Shown: in pieces, positions 23,421 through 37,210 of the stretch | Layout of the letters: each line of letters opens with the position of its first letter | How positions within the stretch are numbered: the first letter of the stretch is position 1 | Source of the DNA: Flavobacterium algicola | GTDB lineage: Bacteria; Bacteroidota; Bacteroidia; Flavobacteriales; Flavobacteriaceae | Direction: 5' to 3' | Length of the DNA: 64,000 nucleotides | Assembly: GCF_022399565.1 (NCBI RefSeq) | Contig: NZ_JAJTUT010000001.1 | Location: forward strand, 1,291,336-1,355,335 | Translations under genes and position numbers: made by a program | The notes under the pieces: generated by a model | Databases searched by the model: none | Told to the model about the DNA's origin: nothing | What the model saw: the letters and a program-made list of their open reading frames with translations, nothing else

Positions 23421-25544
23421 CTAAAATTTATTCAGTATTTTTTCAATAAATTCTTTTTCCCGATCAGTAGTACTCTTAGTCGGATTTGCTTTTAATTTTA
23501 TAATTTCATCTTTAAAAGATTGAAGATAATTTGCATCTAATTCTAAATCTAATAAATTTAAAATTGCTCTCAGTCGAACAAAAGATGATTCACTTCGAAG
23601 AGACATCAAAAACAATTTAGAAAGTTCTTCCCTATCATAATCTACTAGTTGTAAAGAAGAATATTTTAAAATAAGATTTGCAAACAATAATGAACTCTTA
23701 TTGTTATTGATGTTCTTTCTAAAAGAAGTCTGTAACAAACTATAATTTGAAATACCTGCAAGTGTCTCACCTATTGCTTTGCGAATTACAATACGTTCTT
23801 CTCTGCTGCCAACTTTAAAATACTTATTAATATCTTTTAAAGAATTATTAATACTGTTAGTATCCTTTTTACCTTTCTCTTCCCAAGCATCCTTTAAACC
23901 TACTGTCTTATTGATAACTAATTTTGAATCATTAGAATCCTTGTCCACAGCAAAATAACCTAGACGTTGAAATTGAAATTGATCACCAACTTGTGCGGTA
24001 GCCAAACTTGGCTCTAAATACGCAGTGGTAACATTTAATGAATCTACATTCATAAAATCTAGAAAATTCTTTTCTTTATGACTATCTGGAGCTTCATCAA
24101 TAAACAATCGATCATATAAACGAACTTCGGCAGGTATAGCATGCGCTACAGAAACCCAATGTAATGTTCCTGCAACTTTACGTTGTGATGCTTCACTCCC
24201 ACTTCCGCTGCGACTATCCTCGTCATAAGACACCTGAATTTCTGTTATCTTTCCAGATGCATCCTTAGTAACCGATTCTCCTTTAATGATATAACCATTT
24301 TTTAAACGAACTTCATTACCGATACTAAGTCTAAAAAACTTAGGCGGAGCTACTTCCAAAAAGTCTTCTCTCTCAATATATAATTCTCTAGAAAATGGTA
24401 CTTTTCTGAAACCTGCAGACTCATCTTCTTGGTTATTTTCGGCATCCAACAATTCTTCTTTACATACAGGATAATTAATGACAACCACTTTTACAGGATC
24501 AAGAACAGCCATAACTCTAGGAGCTATCTTATTTAAATCATCACGTAAACAAAACTCTAATAAAGAAAAATCTATTATATTTTCACGCTTGGCAACTCCA
24601 ATATTTTCACAAAATTTACGAATAGAATTTGGTGTGTAACCTCTCCTTCTTAAACCCGATATAGTTGGCATACGAGGATCATCCCATCCGTTAACAATTT
24701 TATCTTGAACCAACTGCAAAAGTTTTCTTTTACTCATTACAGTATAATTCAAATTCAAACGAGCAAATTCATACTGATGTGGTCTCACTTTGTTCTCGTC
24801 ATAAATCTGATCAAGAAACCAATTGTATAATTCTCTATGCATCACAAATTCTAATGTACATATAGAATGAGAGACTTGTTCTATGTAATCACTTTCACCA
24901 TGTGCAAAATCATACATTGGATAGATTTTCCAATCATTACCTGTACGGTGGTGATGGCGATGTAATACTCTATAAATTAAGGGATCACGCATCAACATAT
25001 TTGTAGATGCCATATCTATTTTGGCACGTAAAACATGACTTCCTTCAGGAAAATCACCATTTTTCATACCTTCAAATAAACTTAAATTTTCTTGGACAGA
25101 ACGGTTTCTATAAGGACCATCAACACCTGCTTGAGTAGGTGTTCCTTTTTGCGCAGCCATATCTTCAGATGACTGACTATCCACATAGGCTTTACCATCA
25201 TTAATCATCTTTACAGCCCAATCATATAACTGTTGAAAATAATCAGATGCATAACGTTCTTCAGCCCATTCAAAGCCTAACCAATTTAAATCTTCTTTTA
25301 TTGCATCAACATATTCCTGTTCTTCTTTGGCAGGATTGGTATCATCAAAACGTAAATTAACTGGAGCATTGTACTTTAACCCTAGACCAAATTGTAAGCA
25401 AATTGATTTAGCATGACCAATGTGTAAATAGCCATTTGGCTCTGGTGGAAAACGAAAACGCAATTGGTCTTGTGGAAAACCATTTGCTAGATTTTCTTCA
25501 ATGATTTGTTCTATAAAATTAAGCGATTTATCGTCGGTAGCCAT
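23421..25544 (-). CDS. glnS: Glutaminyl-tRNA synthetase with C-terminal extension
   Basis: 707 residues. Class I synthetase that charges tRNA-Gln. HIGH-type motif in PPEPNGYLHIGHAKS (residues 31-45), KMSKS-type in VMSKRKLLQL, then the beta-barrel anticodon-binding domains. The catalytic and anticodon parts account for about 560 residues, as in E. coli GlnRS. The remaining 140-150 (from about KYFKVGSREERIVIRKAI) form an additional helical domain with a HEAT-like look (SFVRLRAILNLLDLE). It does not obviously match the YqeY-like extension of Deinococcus GlnRS. Own promoter and terminator. Confidence 0.95.
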   Translation of the reverse strand: MATDDKSLNFIEQIIEENLANGFPQDQLRFRFPPEPNGYLHIGHAKSICLQFGLGLKYNAPVNLRFDDTNPAKEEQEYVDAIKEDLNWLGFEWAEERYASDYFQQLYDWAVKMINDGKAYVDSQSSEDMAAQKGTPTQAGVDGPYRNRSVQENLSLFEGMKNGDFPEGSHVLRAKIDMASTNMLMRDPLIYRVLHRHHHRTGNDWKIYPMYDFAHGESDYIEQVSHSICTLEFVMHRELYNWFLDQIYDENKVRPHQYEFARLNLNYTVMSKRKLLQLVQDKIVNGWDDPRMPTISGLRRRGYTPNSIRKFCENIGVAKRENIIDFSLLEFCLRDDLNKIAPRVMAVLDPVKVVVINYPVCKEELLDAENNQEDESAGFRKVPFSRELYIEREDFLEVAPPKFFRLSIGNEVRLKNGYIIKGESVTKDASGKITEIQVSYDEDSRSGSGSEASQRKVAGTLHWVSVAHAIPAEVRLYDRLFIDEAPDSHKEKNFLDFMNVDSLNVTTAYLEPSLATAQVGDQFQFQRLGYFAVDKDSNDSKLVINKTVGLKDAWEEKGKKDTNSINNSLKDINKYFKVGSREERIVIRKAIGETLAGISNYSLLQTSFRKNINNNKSSLLFANLILKYSSLQLVDYDREELSKLFLMSLRSESSFVRLRAILNLLDLELDANYLQSFKDEIIKLKANPTKSTTDREKEFIEKILNKF

Positions 25545-25562
25545 TATTTTGTTTTATTTTAG

Positions 25563-25570
25563 CAAAGATA
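25563..25570 (-). promoter_or_regulatory. -7 promoter element of glnS (TATCTTTG)
   Basis: The minus strand reads TATCTTTG, matching TAnnTTTG, 18 nt before the glnS ATG at 25544. Confidence 0.6.
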
Positions 25571-25649
25571 AAAAAAAGGTTTTAGGTTTCAGGTTTAAAG
25601 TTAAGACTATGAACCTGCAATTTTCAACTTGCAAATTTAAACAAATATT

Positions 25650-26009
25650 ATGGGTGTTATAAAATTAAAAAATATTAGAACTTTTTCCTTTCATGGTTGT
25701 CTAGTCGAAGAATCTAAAATAGGATCTGACTACAGCGTAGATCTAAAAATAAAAACAGATTTGACCACCTCTTGCCTATCAGATGAGCTAAACGATACTG
25801 TAGATTACGTCTTACTAAATAAGATTGTTGTTGAAGAAATGGCTATTCGATCAAAATTATTAGAACATGTAGCACAAAGAATTATATTTAGAACATTCAA
25901 GGAGCTACCGCAAGTAAGTAAAGTAACTATTGGAGTTTCAAAATTAAATCCTCCTATTGGTGGAGATGTAGAATCTGTTACTGTAGAGCTTACAGAAGAT
26001 AGAAATTAA
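25650..26009 (+). CDS. folB: Dihydroneopterin aldolase
   Basis: 119 residues. It catalyses conversion of 7,8-dihydroneopterin to 6-hydroxymethyl-dihydropterin and glycolaldehyde in folate synthesis. Family marks: IRTFSFHGCLVEESKIG (family pattern HGxxxxE with the catalytic-site Glu), a DYSVDL strand, LNDTVDYVLL, and the late Lys in VSKLNPPIGG. The enzyme works as an octamer with tetramer rings. It is divergent from glnS and upstream of tRNA-Cys on the same strand. Other folate genes are not in the window. Confidence 0.93.
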   Translation: MGVIKLKNIRTFSFHGCLVEESKIGSDYSVDLKIKTDLTTSCLSDELNDTVDYVLLNKIVVEEMAIRSKLLEHVAQRIIFRTFKELPQVSKVTIGVSKLNPPIGGDVESVTVELTEDRN

Positions 26010-26186
26010 TAAAAGTCTAAGGAACAAGAGCAATTAAAAATTTGTACAAAATTAATTTGTACAAAAGAATCAATCAACTACTTTAATTAGTGGTAGTTAT
26101 ACTAAATGAAAAGAAAGTATTATTGAAACTTAAATTTATATTCTAAAGTTTTAATCTTTTAAGTTTTAATTTTTAAAGTTTTTGAT

Positions 26187-26194
26187 TACTTTTG
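26187..26194 (+). promoter_or_regulatory. -7 promoter element of tRNA-Cys (TACTTTTG)
   Basis: TACTTTTG matches TAnnTTTG and lies 16 nt before the first base of the mature tRNA, a normal distance for a short 5' leader. Confidence 0.65.
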
Positions 26195-26210
26195 TCACCC
26201 GATTAACAAT

Positions 26211-26281
26211 GGCGTCGTGGCCGAGTGGCTAGGCTGGGCTCTGCAAAAGCTCCTACTCCGGTTCGAATCCGGACGATGCCT
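26211..26281 (+). tRNA. tRNA-Cys (GCA)
   Basis: Full cloverleaf: acceptor GGCGTCG (26211-26217) pairs with CGATGCC (26274-26280) with one G-U. D-arm GCC...GGC. Anticodon stem GGGCT/AGCTC around loop CTGCAAA with anticodon GCA (Cys). T-arm TCCGG-TTCGAAT-CCGGA. Discriminator base T at 26281. CCA is not encoded. Immediately followed by a terminator and by five extra partial copies of its own 3' end. Confidence 0.95.
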
Positions 26282-26765
26282 CAAAAACCTTCAAAGAAAT
26301 TTGAAGGTTTTTTTTATGTCGAAATTTTTAGAAAAAATTAGATAAATTACTGTTCGAATCCACACGATGCTTAAATAATCTTTAAAGAAGTTTAAAGGAT
26401 TTTTTATATAGAAATTTTTAGAAAAAATTGGATAAATTATTGTTCGAATCCGGACGATGCCTCAAAAACTTTCAAAGAAATTTGAAGGTTTTTTTTATGT
26501 CTAAATTTTTAGAAAAAATTAGATAAATTACTGTTCGAATCCGGACTATGTATCAAGAACCTTTAAAGAAGTTTGAAGGATTTTTTATATAGAAATTTTT
26601 AGAAAAAATTGGATAAATTATTGTTCGAATCCGGACAATACCTCAAAAACCCTTAAGGAAATTTAAAGTTTTTTTTTGTATATAAATTTTTAGAAAAAAT
26701 TGGATAAATTATTGTTCGAATCTGGACGATGTCTCAGAAATCTTCAAAAAGACTTTAAATTTTTT
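26262..26765 (+). repeat. Tandem array of tRNA-Cys 3'-end plus terminator units (about 91 bp period)
   Basis: Units start with TTCGAATCC-type T-loop sequence at 26262 (inside the real tRNA), 26353, 26443, 26534, 26624 and 26715. Spacings are 91, 90, 91, 90 and 91 bp. Each later unit keeps 15 to 19 of the 19 bases covering T-loop, T-stem and acceptor 3' strand; the unit at 26443 is exact. Each then has a hairpin with T-run and a shared AT-rich tail (AATTTTTAGAAAAAATT). Odd and even units differ consistently, so the array looks like duplication of a 181-bp dimer. None of the extra units has a 5' tRNA half. After 26765 the gap to 27046 shows nothing recognisable. Confidence 0.93.
26286..26315 (+). 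terminator. tRNA-Cys terminator
   Basis: AACCTTCAAA (26286-26295) pairs with TTTGAAGGTT (26300-26309), loop GAAA, followed by T-run. Degenerate versions recur in every later unit of the array. Confidence 0.9.
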
Positions 26766-27046
26766 TGCTTATAATTTAGACAAATTATAAAACTAGAATT
26801 TACAAATAAATACTAAAATTCAAACTTTTGTCAACTGTGAATTTCATAAAATTGTAATGATGAATTACTAAGCTACTAATAAATACAGTAGAAAATTTAA
26901 ATAGATTAGCAAAGGTTTAAAGCAGCTGTAATTTAATATTGTTTAAGTTTTCAAATATTCCATTAGATACCATTGTAAGAGCTTGATAGTATGTTTTTAT
27001 ATCAATTACAGTCGAATAGATAAAAGATGTTAATACGGCATAAAAA

Positions 27047-27065
27047 AACGTCCCTGAAGGACGTT
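27047..27065 (-). terminator. Terminator of the rnr-DUF2807-LysE operon
   Basis: AACGTCC (27047-27053) pairs with GGACGTT (27059-27065); on the minus strand a TTTTTTATG tract follows, just past the LysE stop. Confidence 0.85.
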
Positions 27066-27069
27066 CTCA

Positions 27070-27756
27070 TTATTTTTTATATTCAATCTTTTTAAAAGCT
27101 TGCTTGACTATTTCCTTTTCGTTAGGAAAAAAGCCTTGTGACATCAGCACGATACCAAAAACCATCAACACGATGCTTATCCCCTGTTTGATCTTTAGTA
27201 TGTTACTTGGAATCATTTTTGATTTTAACTGCTTTGCTAGAATGATTTTTATCGCATCTATAATCAAATAAGTTACAATTACAGTTGTAAAAAATGTCAT
27301 CATACGAGATGTTTGCATCTCCAACTTAGGTCCGATAGATATTATAATTGCTAACCAAAATCCGAGAACACCAATGTTAATTATGTTTAAGATAAAACCT
27401 TTGAAAAATAGACTGAGGTAATTCTTTTTGATGATTTCGTTATCAATTTCTTTAGTATTGATTCTCTTTTCTTTATGAAGATTTAAAAAAGAAATTATAC
27501 CATAAGCTGCCATGATAATACCTCCAAAAATGAAAAGCGAAGGTTTATCTTCTAGACTTTTAATCATTCGATAACTACCCAAATAAGCAATAGATATAAA
27601 AATAGTATCTGCAAGAACAACTCCTAAGTCAAATACTAAAGCAGCCCTGAAACCTTTTACAATACTAGTTTCTAGCAGTATAAAAAATACAGGACCGATC
27701 ATAAAACTTAAAAAAATACCCCAAGGAATACCAGCTAGAATATCATTTATCATCAA
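27070..27756 (-). CDS. LysE family transporter
   Basis: 228 residues with about six membrane helices. It begins with the family pattern IPWGIFLSFMIGPVFFILLE (residues 10-29, including GPVFF near the first helix) and a GFRAALVFDLGVVLADTIFI segment (20 residues). The LysE/RhtB group exports amino acids or related metabolites; the substrate is unknown. Third gene of a tight operon after rnr and DUF2807 (34 bp gap), ending at a terminator. Confidence 0.8.
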   Translation of the reverse strand: MMINDILAGIPWGIFLSFMIGPVFFILLETSIVKGFRAALVFDLGVVLADTIFISIAYLGSYRMIKSLEDKPSLFIFGGIIMAAYGIISFLNLHKEKRINTKEIDNEIIKKNYLSLFFKGFILNIINIGVLGFWLAIIISIGPKLEMQTSRMMTFFTTVIVTYLIIDAIKIILAKQLKSKMIPSNILKIKQGISIVLMVFGIVLMSQGFFPNEKEIVKQAFKKIEYKK

Positions 27757-36182: not shown

Positions 36183-37210
36183 CAACTTCCCCACCGCTTG
36201 TATCGCTAAAAGCATCTCAACTACTGTGAGTCACTTGAGTAGAGATTCTTTCAGAGTGACAAATATTGTGTGATAAGGATTTGACAACATTATTCCTTAA
36301 TCAACTTCCTTCTAATTTGTCTCGCTGAAAGCGTCTCAGCAATTGTGAGTCACATGTGTAGTGACTCTTTCAGAGTGACAAATACTGTGTGATAAGGTTT
36401 GTGTAGTAACAAATTGTGTAACAAATCTTTAACAATAATAATCCAGAATTAAGTTCCATCTAGTTTGTCACGCTGAAAGCATCTCAAGAACTATGAGTCA
36501 CTTATGTAGAGACTCTTTCAGAGTGACAAATATTGTGTGATAAAGTTTGTAGTAAGAGTTGCGTAAAAAGCATTCGACAATAATAACCGACAATCAACTT
36601 CCCCCCAATTTGTCTCGCTGAAAGCGTCTCAGCAACTATGAGTAACTTGTGTAGAGACTCTTTCAGAGTGACAAATATTGTGTAAAAGCACTCTACAAAA
36701 ATAAGCCACAATAAAACTCCCCACCGTTTGTCACACTGAAAGCATCTCAGGAACTATGAGTAACTTGTGTAGAGACTCATTCAGAGTGGCAATACTGGGT
36801 GATAAGTATTGTGTCAAAGTTTTATTTATAAAATTGTTGACAACAGTATTCTATAAATTACTTCTATCTAGTTTGTCACGCTAAATGTATCTCAGCAATT
36901 GTGAGTTACGCGTGCAGAGACTCTTTCAAAGTAACAATTTTATGGTTATTTTTTTTGCGTAAAAAGCACTTAACAACAATAATCTACAATCAAATTCCCC
37001 ATAGTTTGTCTCGCTGAAAGCGTCTCAGCAACTTTGATTCGCTTATGCAGAGACTCTTTCAAAGTGACAATTTTATAGTTATTTTTTTTGCGTAAAAAGC
37101 ACTTAACAACAATAATCCACAATCAAATTCCCCATAGTTTGTCTCGCTGAAATCGTCTCAGCAACTGTGAGTCACTTACGAAGAAACTCTTTCAGAGTGA
37201 CAATATTGTG
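36183..37210. repeat. Array of eight degenerate REP-like repeats (118-148 bp apart)
   Basis: Unit starts (TTTGTCTCGCTGAAAG-type) are at about 36196, 36316, 36464, 36609, 36727, 36872, 37005 and 37138. Each unit ends with CTTTCAGAGTGACAAA, the near-complement of its start, giving a 15-16 bp imperfect inverted repeat around CGTCTCAGCAACTGTGAGTC-type sequence (20 bases). Spacer sequences also share blocks (TAATCCACAATCAA). It fills the 1.06-kb gap between the convergent tex and PepSY genes. No supported ORF lies in the array. Confidence 0.9.

What the first reader, a model, noticed from the sequence alone, without database searches (positions are those of the whole stretch)
26262..26765. Tandem array of tRNA-Cys 3'-end plus terminator units
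Seen directly: after tRNA-Cys there are five further partial copies of its T-loop/acceptor 3' strand. They start at 26353, 26443, 26534, 26624 and 26715. Spacing alternates 91/90 bp and odd and even units differ consistently, so a 181-bp dimer was duplicated. Each unit keeps a hairpin with T-run. No 5' tRNA halves and no integrase are present. Possibilities: successive integration/excision scars at the tRNA 3' attB; replication slippage; or a multi-copy terminator or small-RNA platform. The exact copy at 26443 shows constraint or recent duplication.
Basis: partly seen in the sequence, partly recalled or inferred. Interest (0 to 1): 0.7.

Follow-up and report, generated by a model that had tools for sequence, protein, structure and literature searches.

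The report
Tandem tRNA-end fragments behind palindromic box
Behind the cysteine tRNA gene sit repeated, truncated copies of that gene's end, each introduced by the same short mirror-image sequence; the same sequence and layout recur at other tRNA and 5S rRNA genes in many Flavobacterium relatives, which points to an unexplained DNA process that acts at structural RNA genes.

Summary
The array is real. Behind tRNA-Cys (26211-26282) five further copies of the gene's last ~22 nt lie 90/91 bp apart, with a 181-bp dimer. It is not a local oddity: such units follow tRNA-Cys in 16 of 36 same-genus loci. Copies are preceded by a near-invariant AT palindrome, AATTTTTANNAAAAATTANNTAAA (the "box"). The exact box occurs in 68 of 150 same-genus genomes (reversed-pattern control 1 of 150). 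Of 48 box loci read, 47 adjoin a structural RNA gene or fragment: tRNA-Cys, -Ser, -Ala, -Leu or 5S rRNA. At tRNA-Leu the box is upstream and reversed and the copied piece is the gene's 5' end. The box lies 5-6 nt from the gene fragment in 77 of 91 tRNA-Cys loci, while the join point inside the gene ranges from position 29 to 60: one side of the junction is set by the box, the other is loose. Copy number differs between close species. Best reading: a box-ended joining event founds the fragment, recombination amplifies it. The enzyme is unknown; no integrase or larger element was seen. E. coli tyrT/tyrV repeats are the closest precedent.

The parts
26187..26194 (+). candidate -7 element TACTTTTG of the tRNA-Cys promoter (Bacteroidota-type TANNTTTG; consensus recalled)
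   Evidence: read from the sequence; not tested
26211..26282 (+). tRNA-Cys (GCA), intact gene
   Evidence: ARAGORN; Rfam tRNA 52.2 bits
26261..26351 (+). unit 1: 3' end of the real tRNA, terminator, box, 5-nt junction
   Evidence: fold z -3.57
26283..26315 (+). intrinsic terminator of tRNA-Cys (13-bp stem, GAAA loop, T-run)
26323..26346 (+). box 1 (AATTTTTAGAAAAAATTAGATAAA), exact match to the box
26352..26441 (+). unit 2: displaced tRNA-Cys fragment (4 of 20 mismatches), weak hairpin, box
26413..26436 (+). box 2 (1 mismatch)
26442..26532 (+). unit 3: exact copy of the tRNA end, strong hairpin, box
   Evidence: fold z -3.81
26504..26527 (+). box 3 (exact)
26533..26622 (+). unit 4: tRNA fragment (3 mismatches), hairpin, box
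26594..26617 (+). box 4 (1 mismatch)
26623..26713 (+). unit 5: tRNA fragment (2 mismatches), decayed hairpin, box
26685..26708 (+). box 5 (1 mismatch)
26714..26770 (+). unit 6: last tRNA fragment, decayed hairpin with T-run; no box follows
25650..26009 (+). upstream neighbour folB (dihydroneopterin aldolase)
   Evidence: Pfam FolB, E 9.2e-30
27070..27756 (-). convergent downstream neighbour, LysE-type translocator
   Evidence: Pfam LysE, E 9.1e-18

Best explanation
The array is a string of displaced tRNA-Cys fragments. A DNA end defined by a short AT palindrome (AATTTTTANNAAAAATTANNTAAA plus 5-6 bp) became joined to a position inside the RNA gene, and the gene was kept intact on the other side by duplication of its end. 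The product is always: intact RNA gene, flank (here the terminator), box, 5-6 bp, then a gene fragment that runs from an internal position out to the gene's end. The same product, with the same box, arose at tRNA-Cys, tRNA-Ser, tRNA-Ala and 5S rRNA (3' fragments) and in mirror image at tRNA-Leu (5' fragments). Once founded, the unit multiplies and shrinks by unequal recombination or slippage, which gives the 181-bp dimer and the varying copy number, and keeps copies similar to the species' own tRNA. Shown: the composite motif, its near-exclusive place beside RNA genes among the loci read, the fixed box-to-fragment distance with variable gene break point, copy-number lability. Inferred: that a nuclease/strand-transfer enzyme or hairpin-stalled template switching that recognises the box makes the junction. 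Unknown: the enzyme, and whether the cell gains anything.
For: Box conserved over 181 units of 64 same-genus loci: columns of AATTTTT and AAAAATTA 0.89-1.00, against about 0.4-0.7 for the junction columns 85-90. Exact box in 68 of 150 same-genus genomes, control 1, and in 17 of 397 family genomes (12 of 237 genera), control 2; of the 14 genomes outside the genus, 12 have it right behind tRNA-Cys. 47 of 48 loci read adjoin an RNA gene or fragment (28 picked by the tool, 20 by me, mostly because they were not at the tRNA-Cys place). 91 of 95 distinct box-bearing tRNA-Cys loci have a tRNA fragment right after the box. Gap box to fragment 5-6 nt in 77 of 91, 4-7 in 87, while the fragment starts at tRNA positions 29-36 (10 loci), 43-53 (75) or 58-60 (6). 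Same 5-6 nt gap in 29 of 34 boxes at Ser, Ala, Leu and 5S; of the other five, two were matched by the script to the neighbouring tRNA-Gly and read 5-6 by eye. Copy number 9 vs 4 between species 98.1% identical in the 840-bp flank, 2 vs 3 at 98.0%, 3 vs 5 at 97.0%. Copies follow the species' own tRNA.
Against: No enzyme, no mobile element and no empty/occupied strain pair was seen, so insertion is inferred from anatomy. The box could have been there first (for instance as a binding site or replication barrier) and have caused the duplication; 3 loci carry a box without a detectable fragment (L060, L405, L321; a fourth, L129, ends at a contig end). Duplication lengths differ: ~68 bp with terminator at tRNA-Cys, about 12 bp at tRNA-Leu. 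Most other genera have neither box nor array: only 6 of 130 have a box (<=2 mismatches) within 600 nt. Many loci were picked because they had several copies, so the 91 of 95 is not an unbiased sample. No random expectation was computed for the 5-6 nt gap.
Confidence: 0.55

Rival explanations
1. Plain tandem duplication: the terminator and AT palindrome stall replication, slippage duplicates the tRNA 3' end plus flank, and the array drifts neutrally with homogenisation.
For: Copy number changes quickly; 181-bp dimer; within-array identity 0.89 against 0.76 between loci; the outermost unit usually lacks the box.
Against: Does not explain why the same box, nearly letter for letter, sits at five kinds of RNA gene with different flanks, why it is kept across genera, or why it is rare elsewhere (in this genome 5 of 10 hits to the 17-nt core with <=1 mismatch are the array, against 7 hits for the reversed control).
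Confidence: 0.2
2. Scars of integrative elements: a tyrosine integrase used the T-loop or anticodon loop as attB, the box is an integrase arm site, and elements were lost, leaving stacked att sites.
For: Regenerated gene plus displaced fragment is the published mark of islands in tRNA genes (PMC4383910, start of abstract seen in the listing). Break points cluster at the anticodon loop and T-loop, the usual integrase sub-locations (recalled).
Against: No element of kilobase size between tRNA-Cys and a box in any locus read; the two long gaps looked into hold insertion sequences (L156, Pfam DDE transposase; L157, IS200-like TnpA by eye). 0 viral contigs carry the 19-nt tRNA end; 5 carry the box, none beside a tRNA. 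Phage and plasmid hits cover only the tRNA body. Break points also fall at 43-49 and 58-60, so there is no fixed core.
Confidence: 0.15
3. Functional RNA or multi-terminator platform: the units are kept because their transcripts (tRNA-like end, terminator hairpin, AT hairpin) act as small RNAs, processing decoys or back-up terminators.
For: Terminator pairs are kept in 90.6% of cells against 72.4% in shuffles, with 293 double changes against 97 +- 7, and in 88.6% in later units alone. TTCGAATCC stays at 0.92-0.98 in 118 later units while the acceptor part falls to about 0.7.
Against: The tRNA-Ser and tRNA-Ala arrays seen have no terminator in the unit; no promoter was recognised before later units; closely related species lack arrays or hold one copy; several of the window's own units no longer fold. 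Block-wise swapping of whole terminators can mimic covariation.
Confidence: 0.1

Closest known systems
E. coli tyrT/tyrV tandem repeats (rttR/tpr region)
   Same: Tested here on K-12: behind tyrV lie three exact 19-nt copies of the tRNA-Tyr 3' end at 178-bp spacing, and a fourth sits between tyrT and tyrV. As here, only the gene's end is copied, in tandem, downstream. By eye a small hairpin (AGCGC GCA GCGCT) and 4 nt precede each of the three copies behind tyrV.
   Different: 178 against ~90 bp, copies exact, tRNA-Tyr, no AT box; to my knowledge (recalled) described for one operon, not as a motif shared by several RNA genes.
Genomic islands in tRNA genes (tyrosine-integrase elements; Islander, PMC4383910)
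   Same: Intact gene regenerated, displaced gene fragment at the far end, break points in anticodon and T-loops.
   Different: The 'island' is about 90 bp, has no cargo and no integrase, and the break point is not fixed.
Dispersed palindromic repeats (REP/BIME, MITEs)
   Same: Short palindrome of conserved sequence found at several places of one genome (G091: tRNA-Cys, -Ser and -Leu loci).
   Different: Nearly confined to RNA-gene ends, one orientation relative to the gene fragment, always coupled to a truncated gene copy.

Membership tests
E. coli tyrT-type tRNA-end repeats | Tandem downstream copies of the tRNA 3' end only | tested here: met
   window; E. coli
E. coli tyrT-type tRNA-end repeats | 178-bp units with exact 19-nt copies | tested here: not met
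   90/91-bp units with 0-4 of 20 mismatches
E. coli tyrT-type tRNA-end repeats | Match to an Rfam model other than tRNA (an RtT family is recalled to exist) | tested here: not met
   nothing but tRNA reaches its gathering score in 25500-27600; no RtT among 9 matches at E<=5
Genomic island in a tRNA gene | Regenerated target plus displaced fragment | tested here: met
Genomic island in a tRNA gene | Integrase gene and cargo between the two | tested here: not met
   units of ~90 bp; nine scanned ORFs without recombinase
Genomic island in a tRNA gene | Fixed crossover core | tested here: not met
   break point 29-60 in the tRNA
REP-like or MITE repeat | Conserved palindrome at several places in one genome | tested here: met
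   G091 holds boxes at tRNA-Cys, tRNA-Ser and tRNA-Leu; in the window's own genome only the tRNA-Cys locus does among the tRNA loci read
REP-like or MITE repeat | Cognate transposase (RAYT or other) in the genome | not tested
Multi-copy terminator | Terminator in every unit | tested here: not met
   units 2, 5, 6 fold no better than shuffles; tRNA-Ser units without terminator

The most novel reading that the evidence does not exclude
A previously undescribed DNA-joining system of Flavobacteriaceae recognises an AT palindrome and joins the DNA 5-6 bp beyond it to the interior of tRNA and 5S rRNA genes, regenerating the gene and leaving stackable micro-insertions of under 100 bp at structural RNA genes.
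Probability: 0.35. Interest if true: 0.9.

Novelty: new variant of a known kind. Interest (0 to 1): 0.72.

Why it matters
Tandem copies of a tRNA end were known to me from one E. coli operon, where their origin and role are, as far as I recall, unsettled. Here natural variation over hundreds of species, several RNA genes and both orientations separates the constant part (box plus 5-6 bp) from the variable part (break point in the gene). That turns an old curiosity into a testable question: what cuts or switches next to the box, and why at RNA genes? If an enzyme is behind it, it would be a new kind of sequence-guided DNA joining; if replication stalling is behind it, the family is a natural record of fork trouble at structural RNA genes.

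Tried and rejected
Genus-only array: first suggested (3 of 397 family genomes, all same genus), withdrawn when the box alone was searched and copies starting in the anticodon loop were seen in other genera.

T-loop as a fixed start point: rejected.

Terminator platform as the general cause: rejected because tRNA-Ser units have no terminator.

Integrative element between tRNA and fragment: not found; the long gaps in L156 and L157 hold insertion sequences. Phages and plasmids: only the tRNA body matches (31 phage records, 1 plasmid). Viral contigs: 0 for the tRNA end, 5 for the box, none by a tRNA.

Small ORF after the T-run: looked at by eye, the frame is not kept between units.

Sigma-70-type promoter scan: 9 sites against 5.7 +- 2.4 in shuffles, not informative for this phylum.

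These 31 include contig ends, pieces cut from longer arrays and single hits in unrelated A/T-rich genomes that look like chance.

Paper searches without relevant result; one search gave the Islander abstract. The library lacks most subscription journals, so absence from print is not shown.

Box palindrome covariation: only 8 double-change cells over 8 pairs against a shuffle mean of 1.5, because the arms hardly vary; not claimed as evidence for an RNA hairpin.

Full report
What is in the window. tRNA-Cys(GCA) lies at 26211-26282 between folB and a convergent LysE-type gene. Behind it the last ~22 nt of the gene recur five times, at 26352, 26442, 26533, 26623 and 26714, in steps of 91, 90, 91, 90 and 91 bp. 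Odd and even units differ and a 181-bp dimer is repeated (TRF score 777, 90% matches). The third unit copies the last 20 nt of the tRNA exactly, the others with 4, 3, 2 and 2 mismatches. None of the other 44 tRNA genes found in the genome has such copies.

Anatomy of the unit. In 191 complete units from tRNA-Cys loci, 168 are 88-92 bp long (about thirty loci were chosen because they hold several copies). Aligning 181 of them from 64 loci shows three parts: the tRNA end, a terminator hairpin whose sequence is exchanged while its pairing is kept (90.6% of cells paired, shuffles 72.4%), and an AT palindrome, AATTTTTANNAAAAATTANNTAAA, whose arms are almost invariant. In later units TTCGAATCC stays at 0.92-0.98 while the acceptor part falls to about 0.7. 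Units within an array are 0.89 identical, between arrays 0.76.

Distribution. Copies behind tRNA-Cys (<=5 of 20 mismatches) occur in 16 of 36 same-genus loci (one further genome, G031, gave no tRNA-Cys). This criterion misses copies with an inserted palindrome, such as L009 and L014. The junction of box and T-loop is found in 3 of 397 family genomes, all same genus, but the box alone in 17 of 397, 12 of 237 genera, with 2 genomes in the reversed-pattern control. Of the 14 genomes outside the genus, 12 (nine genera) carry it right behind tRNA-Cys, 2 inside unrelated sequence. There the copies start in the anticodon region and often have a changed T-arm. Most other genera have just tRNA-Cys and a terminator: 6 of 130 loci have a box with <=2 mismatches within 600 nt, 0 of 130 shuffles and 0 of 130 on the other strand.

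The decisive step. A search for the exact box in 150 same-genus genomes found it in 68, control 1. I read 48 loci: 28 given by the tool and 20 that I picked, mostly away from the tRNA-Cys place. 47 lie at a structural RNA gene or fragment: tRNA-Cys (33), tRNA-Ser GGA (2), tRNA-Ala GGC (2), tRNA-Leu CAA (4), tRNA-Leu UAA in a Gly-Leu pair (4) and 5S rRNA (2; one 5S gene called by Rfam, the other seen only as a fragment at a contig end). One, L451, has no RNA gene. At tRNA-Leu the box is upstream and reversed, and the copied piece is the gene's 5' end; L493 has an array of four such units by eye. At tRNA-Ser of L195 there are seven boxes in 66-bp units without terminator.

The junction. In 95 distinct tRNA-Cys loci with a box, 91 have a tRNA fragment directly behind it; the exceptions are L129 (contig end), L060, L405 and L321. 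The distance from box to fragment is 5 or 6 nt in 77 of 91 and 4-7 in 87, but the fragment begins at tRNA position 29-36 in 10, 43-53 in 75 and 58-60 in 6 loci. In the outliers L301 and L486 the script took a later stretch of the copy; by eye their copies also start about 5 nt behind the box. At Ser, Ala, Leu and 5S 29 of 34 boxes show 5-6 nt; in two of the other five (L468, L490) the script matched the neighbouring tRNA-Gly and the Leu fragment stands at 5-6 nt by eye. No random expectation was computed for this gap. One side of the join is thus fixed by the box and the other is loose: that is how an end-defined joining event looks, not a pair of att sites.

Dynamics. Pairs of species nearly identical in the 840-bp flank differ in copy number: 9 vs 4 at 98.1%, 2 vs 3 at 98.0%, 3 vs 5 at 97.0% (526 bp aligned), 6 vs 10 at 95.6% (sequences of some pairs). 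One other close pair of different genomes in that list (97.6%) has one copy each. Copies follow the species' own tRNA where that differs. So arrays grow and shrink by recombination, and the window's dimer is an ordinary product of it.

Mechanism. Shown: composite motif, location, junction rule, lability. Inferred: something acts 5-6 bp beyond the palindrome, either an enzyme that cuts and joins there or a polymerase that stalls on the palindrome and switches template into the RNA gene. The event must leave an intact gene, because tRNA-Cys is single-copy in this genome (loci and the ARAGORN list show no other tRNA-Cys); that would explain why only products with a regenerated gene are seen. An integrase origin is possible but no element was found. 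A role for the RNA is possible but not needed.

Comparison. In E. coli K-12 three exact 19-nt copies of the tRNA-Tyr end follow tyrV at 178-bp steps and a fourth lies between tyrT and tyrV; by eye a small hairpin and 4 nt precede each of the three behind tyrV. It is the same kind of layout at another RNA gene in another phylum, without the AT box. Published tRNA islands share the regenerated target and displaced fragment (PMC4383910, start of abstract) but carry an integrase and cargo. My searches of the open-access library found no description of this family; that is weak evidence of novelty.

Noticed in passing
own genome G000:C1, about 713029-713146, between tRNA-Gly and tRNA-Leu(UAA); outside the window: A diverged relative of the mirror-image layout: GCTGAATGG, then TTAATTAA, then palindrome GTGATTTT-TTC-GAAAATCAC, then CATCCATT, before tRNA-Leu. 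The arms differ from the box but still pair.
   Followed up: partly
fragments in L009, L014, L077, L217, L296-L300 and the 5S fragment of L479: A second palindrome, TCCCGA-NNNN-TCGGGA or a close variant, sits inside many displaced RNA fragments. The window's genome holds 24 such palindromes (control 0), none in the window.
   Followed up: partly
window 36299-37204: Tandem intergenic repeats of 145, 118 and 133 bp sharing a CTCGCTGAAAGCGTCTCAGC-like core.
   Followed up: no
L156:956-2404 and L157 about 714-1150: Insertion sequences inside the arrays: a DDE transposase gene in a terminator hairpin (Pfam) and an IS200-like TnpA gene next to a box (by eye).
   Followed up: partly
L299, L304, L390, L442: Variant box TAAATTTTANNAAAATTTATAGTAAGA with the same layout in other genera, sometimes in one array with the usual box.
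   Followed up: partly
L216 and L283: Contigs filed as Rhizobium and Bifidobacterium breve MAGs carry Flavobacterium-type sequence; L283's contig has the same length (51,472) as contig C4 of a same-genus genome, G021. Probably mislabelled records.
   Followed up: no
L484:401-481: A Flavo-1 RNA (Rfam RF01705, 52.8 bits) lies a few hundred bases from the 5S fragment.
   Followed up: no
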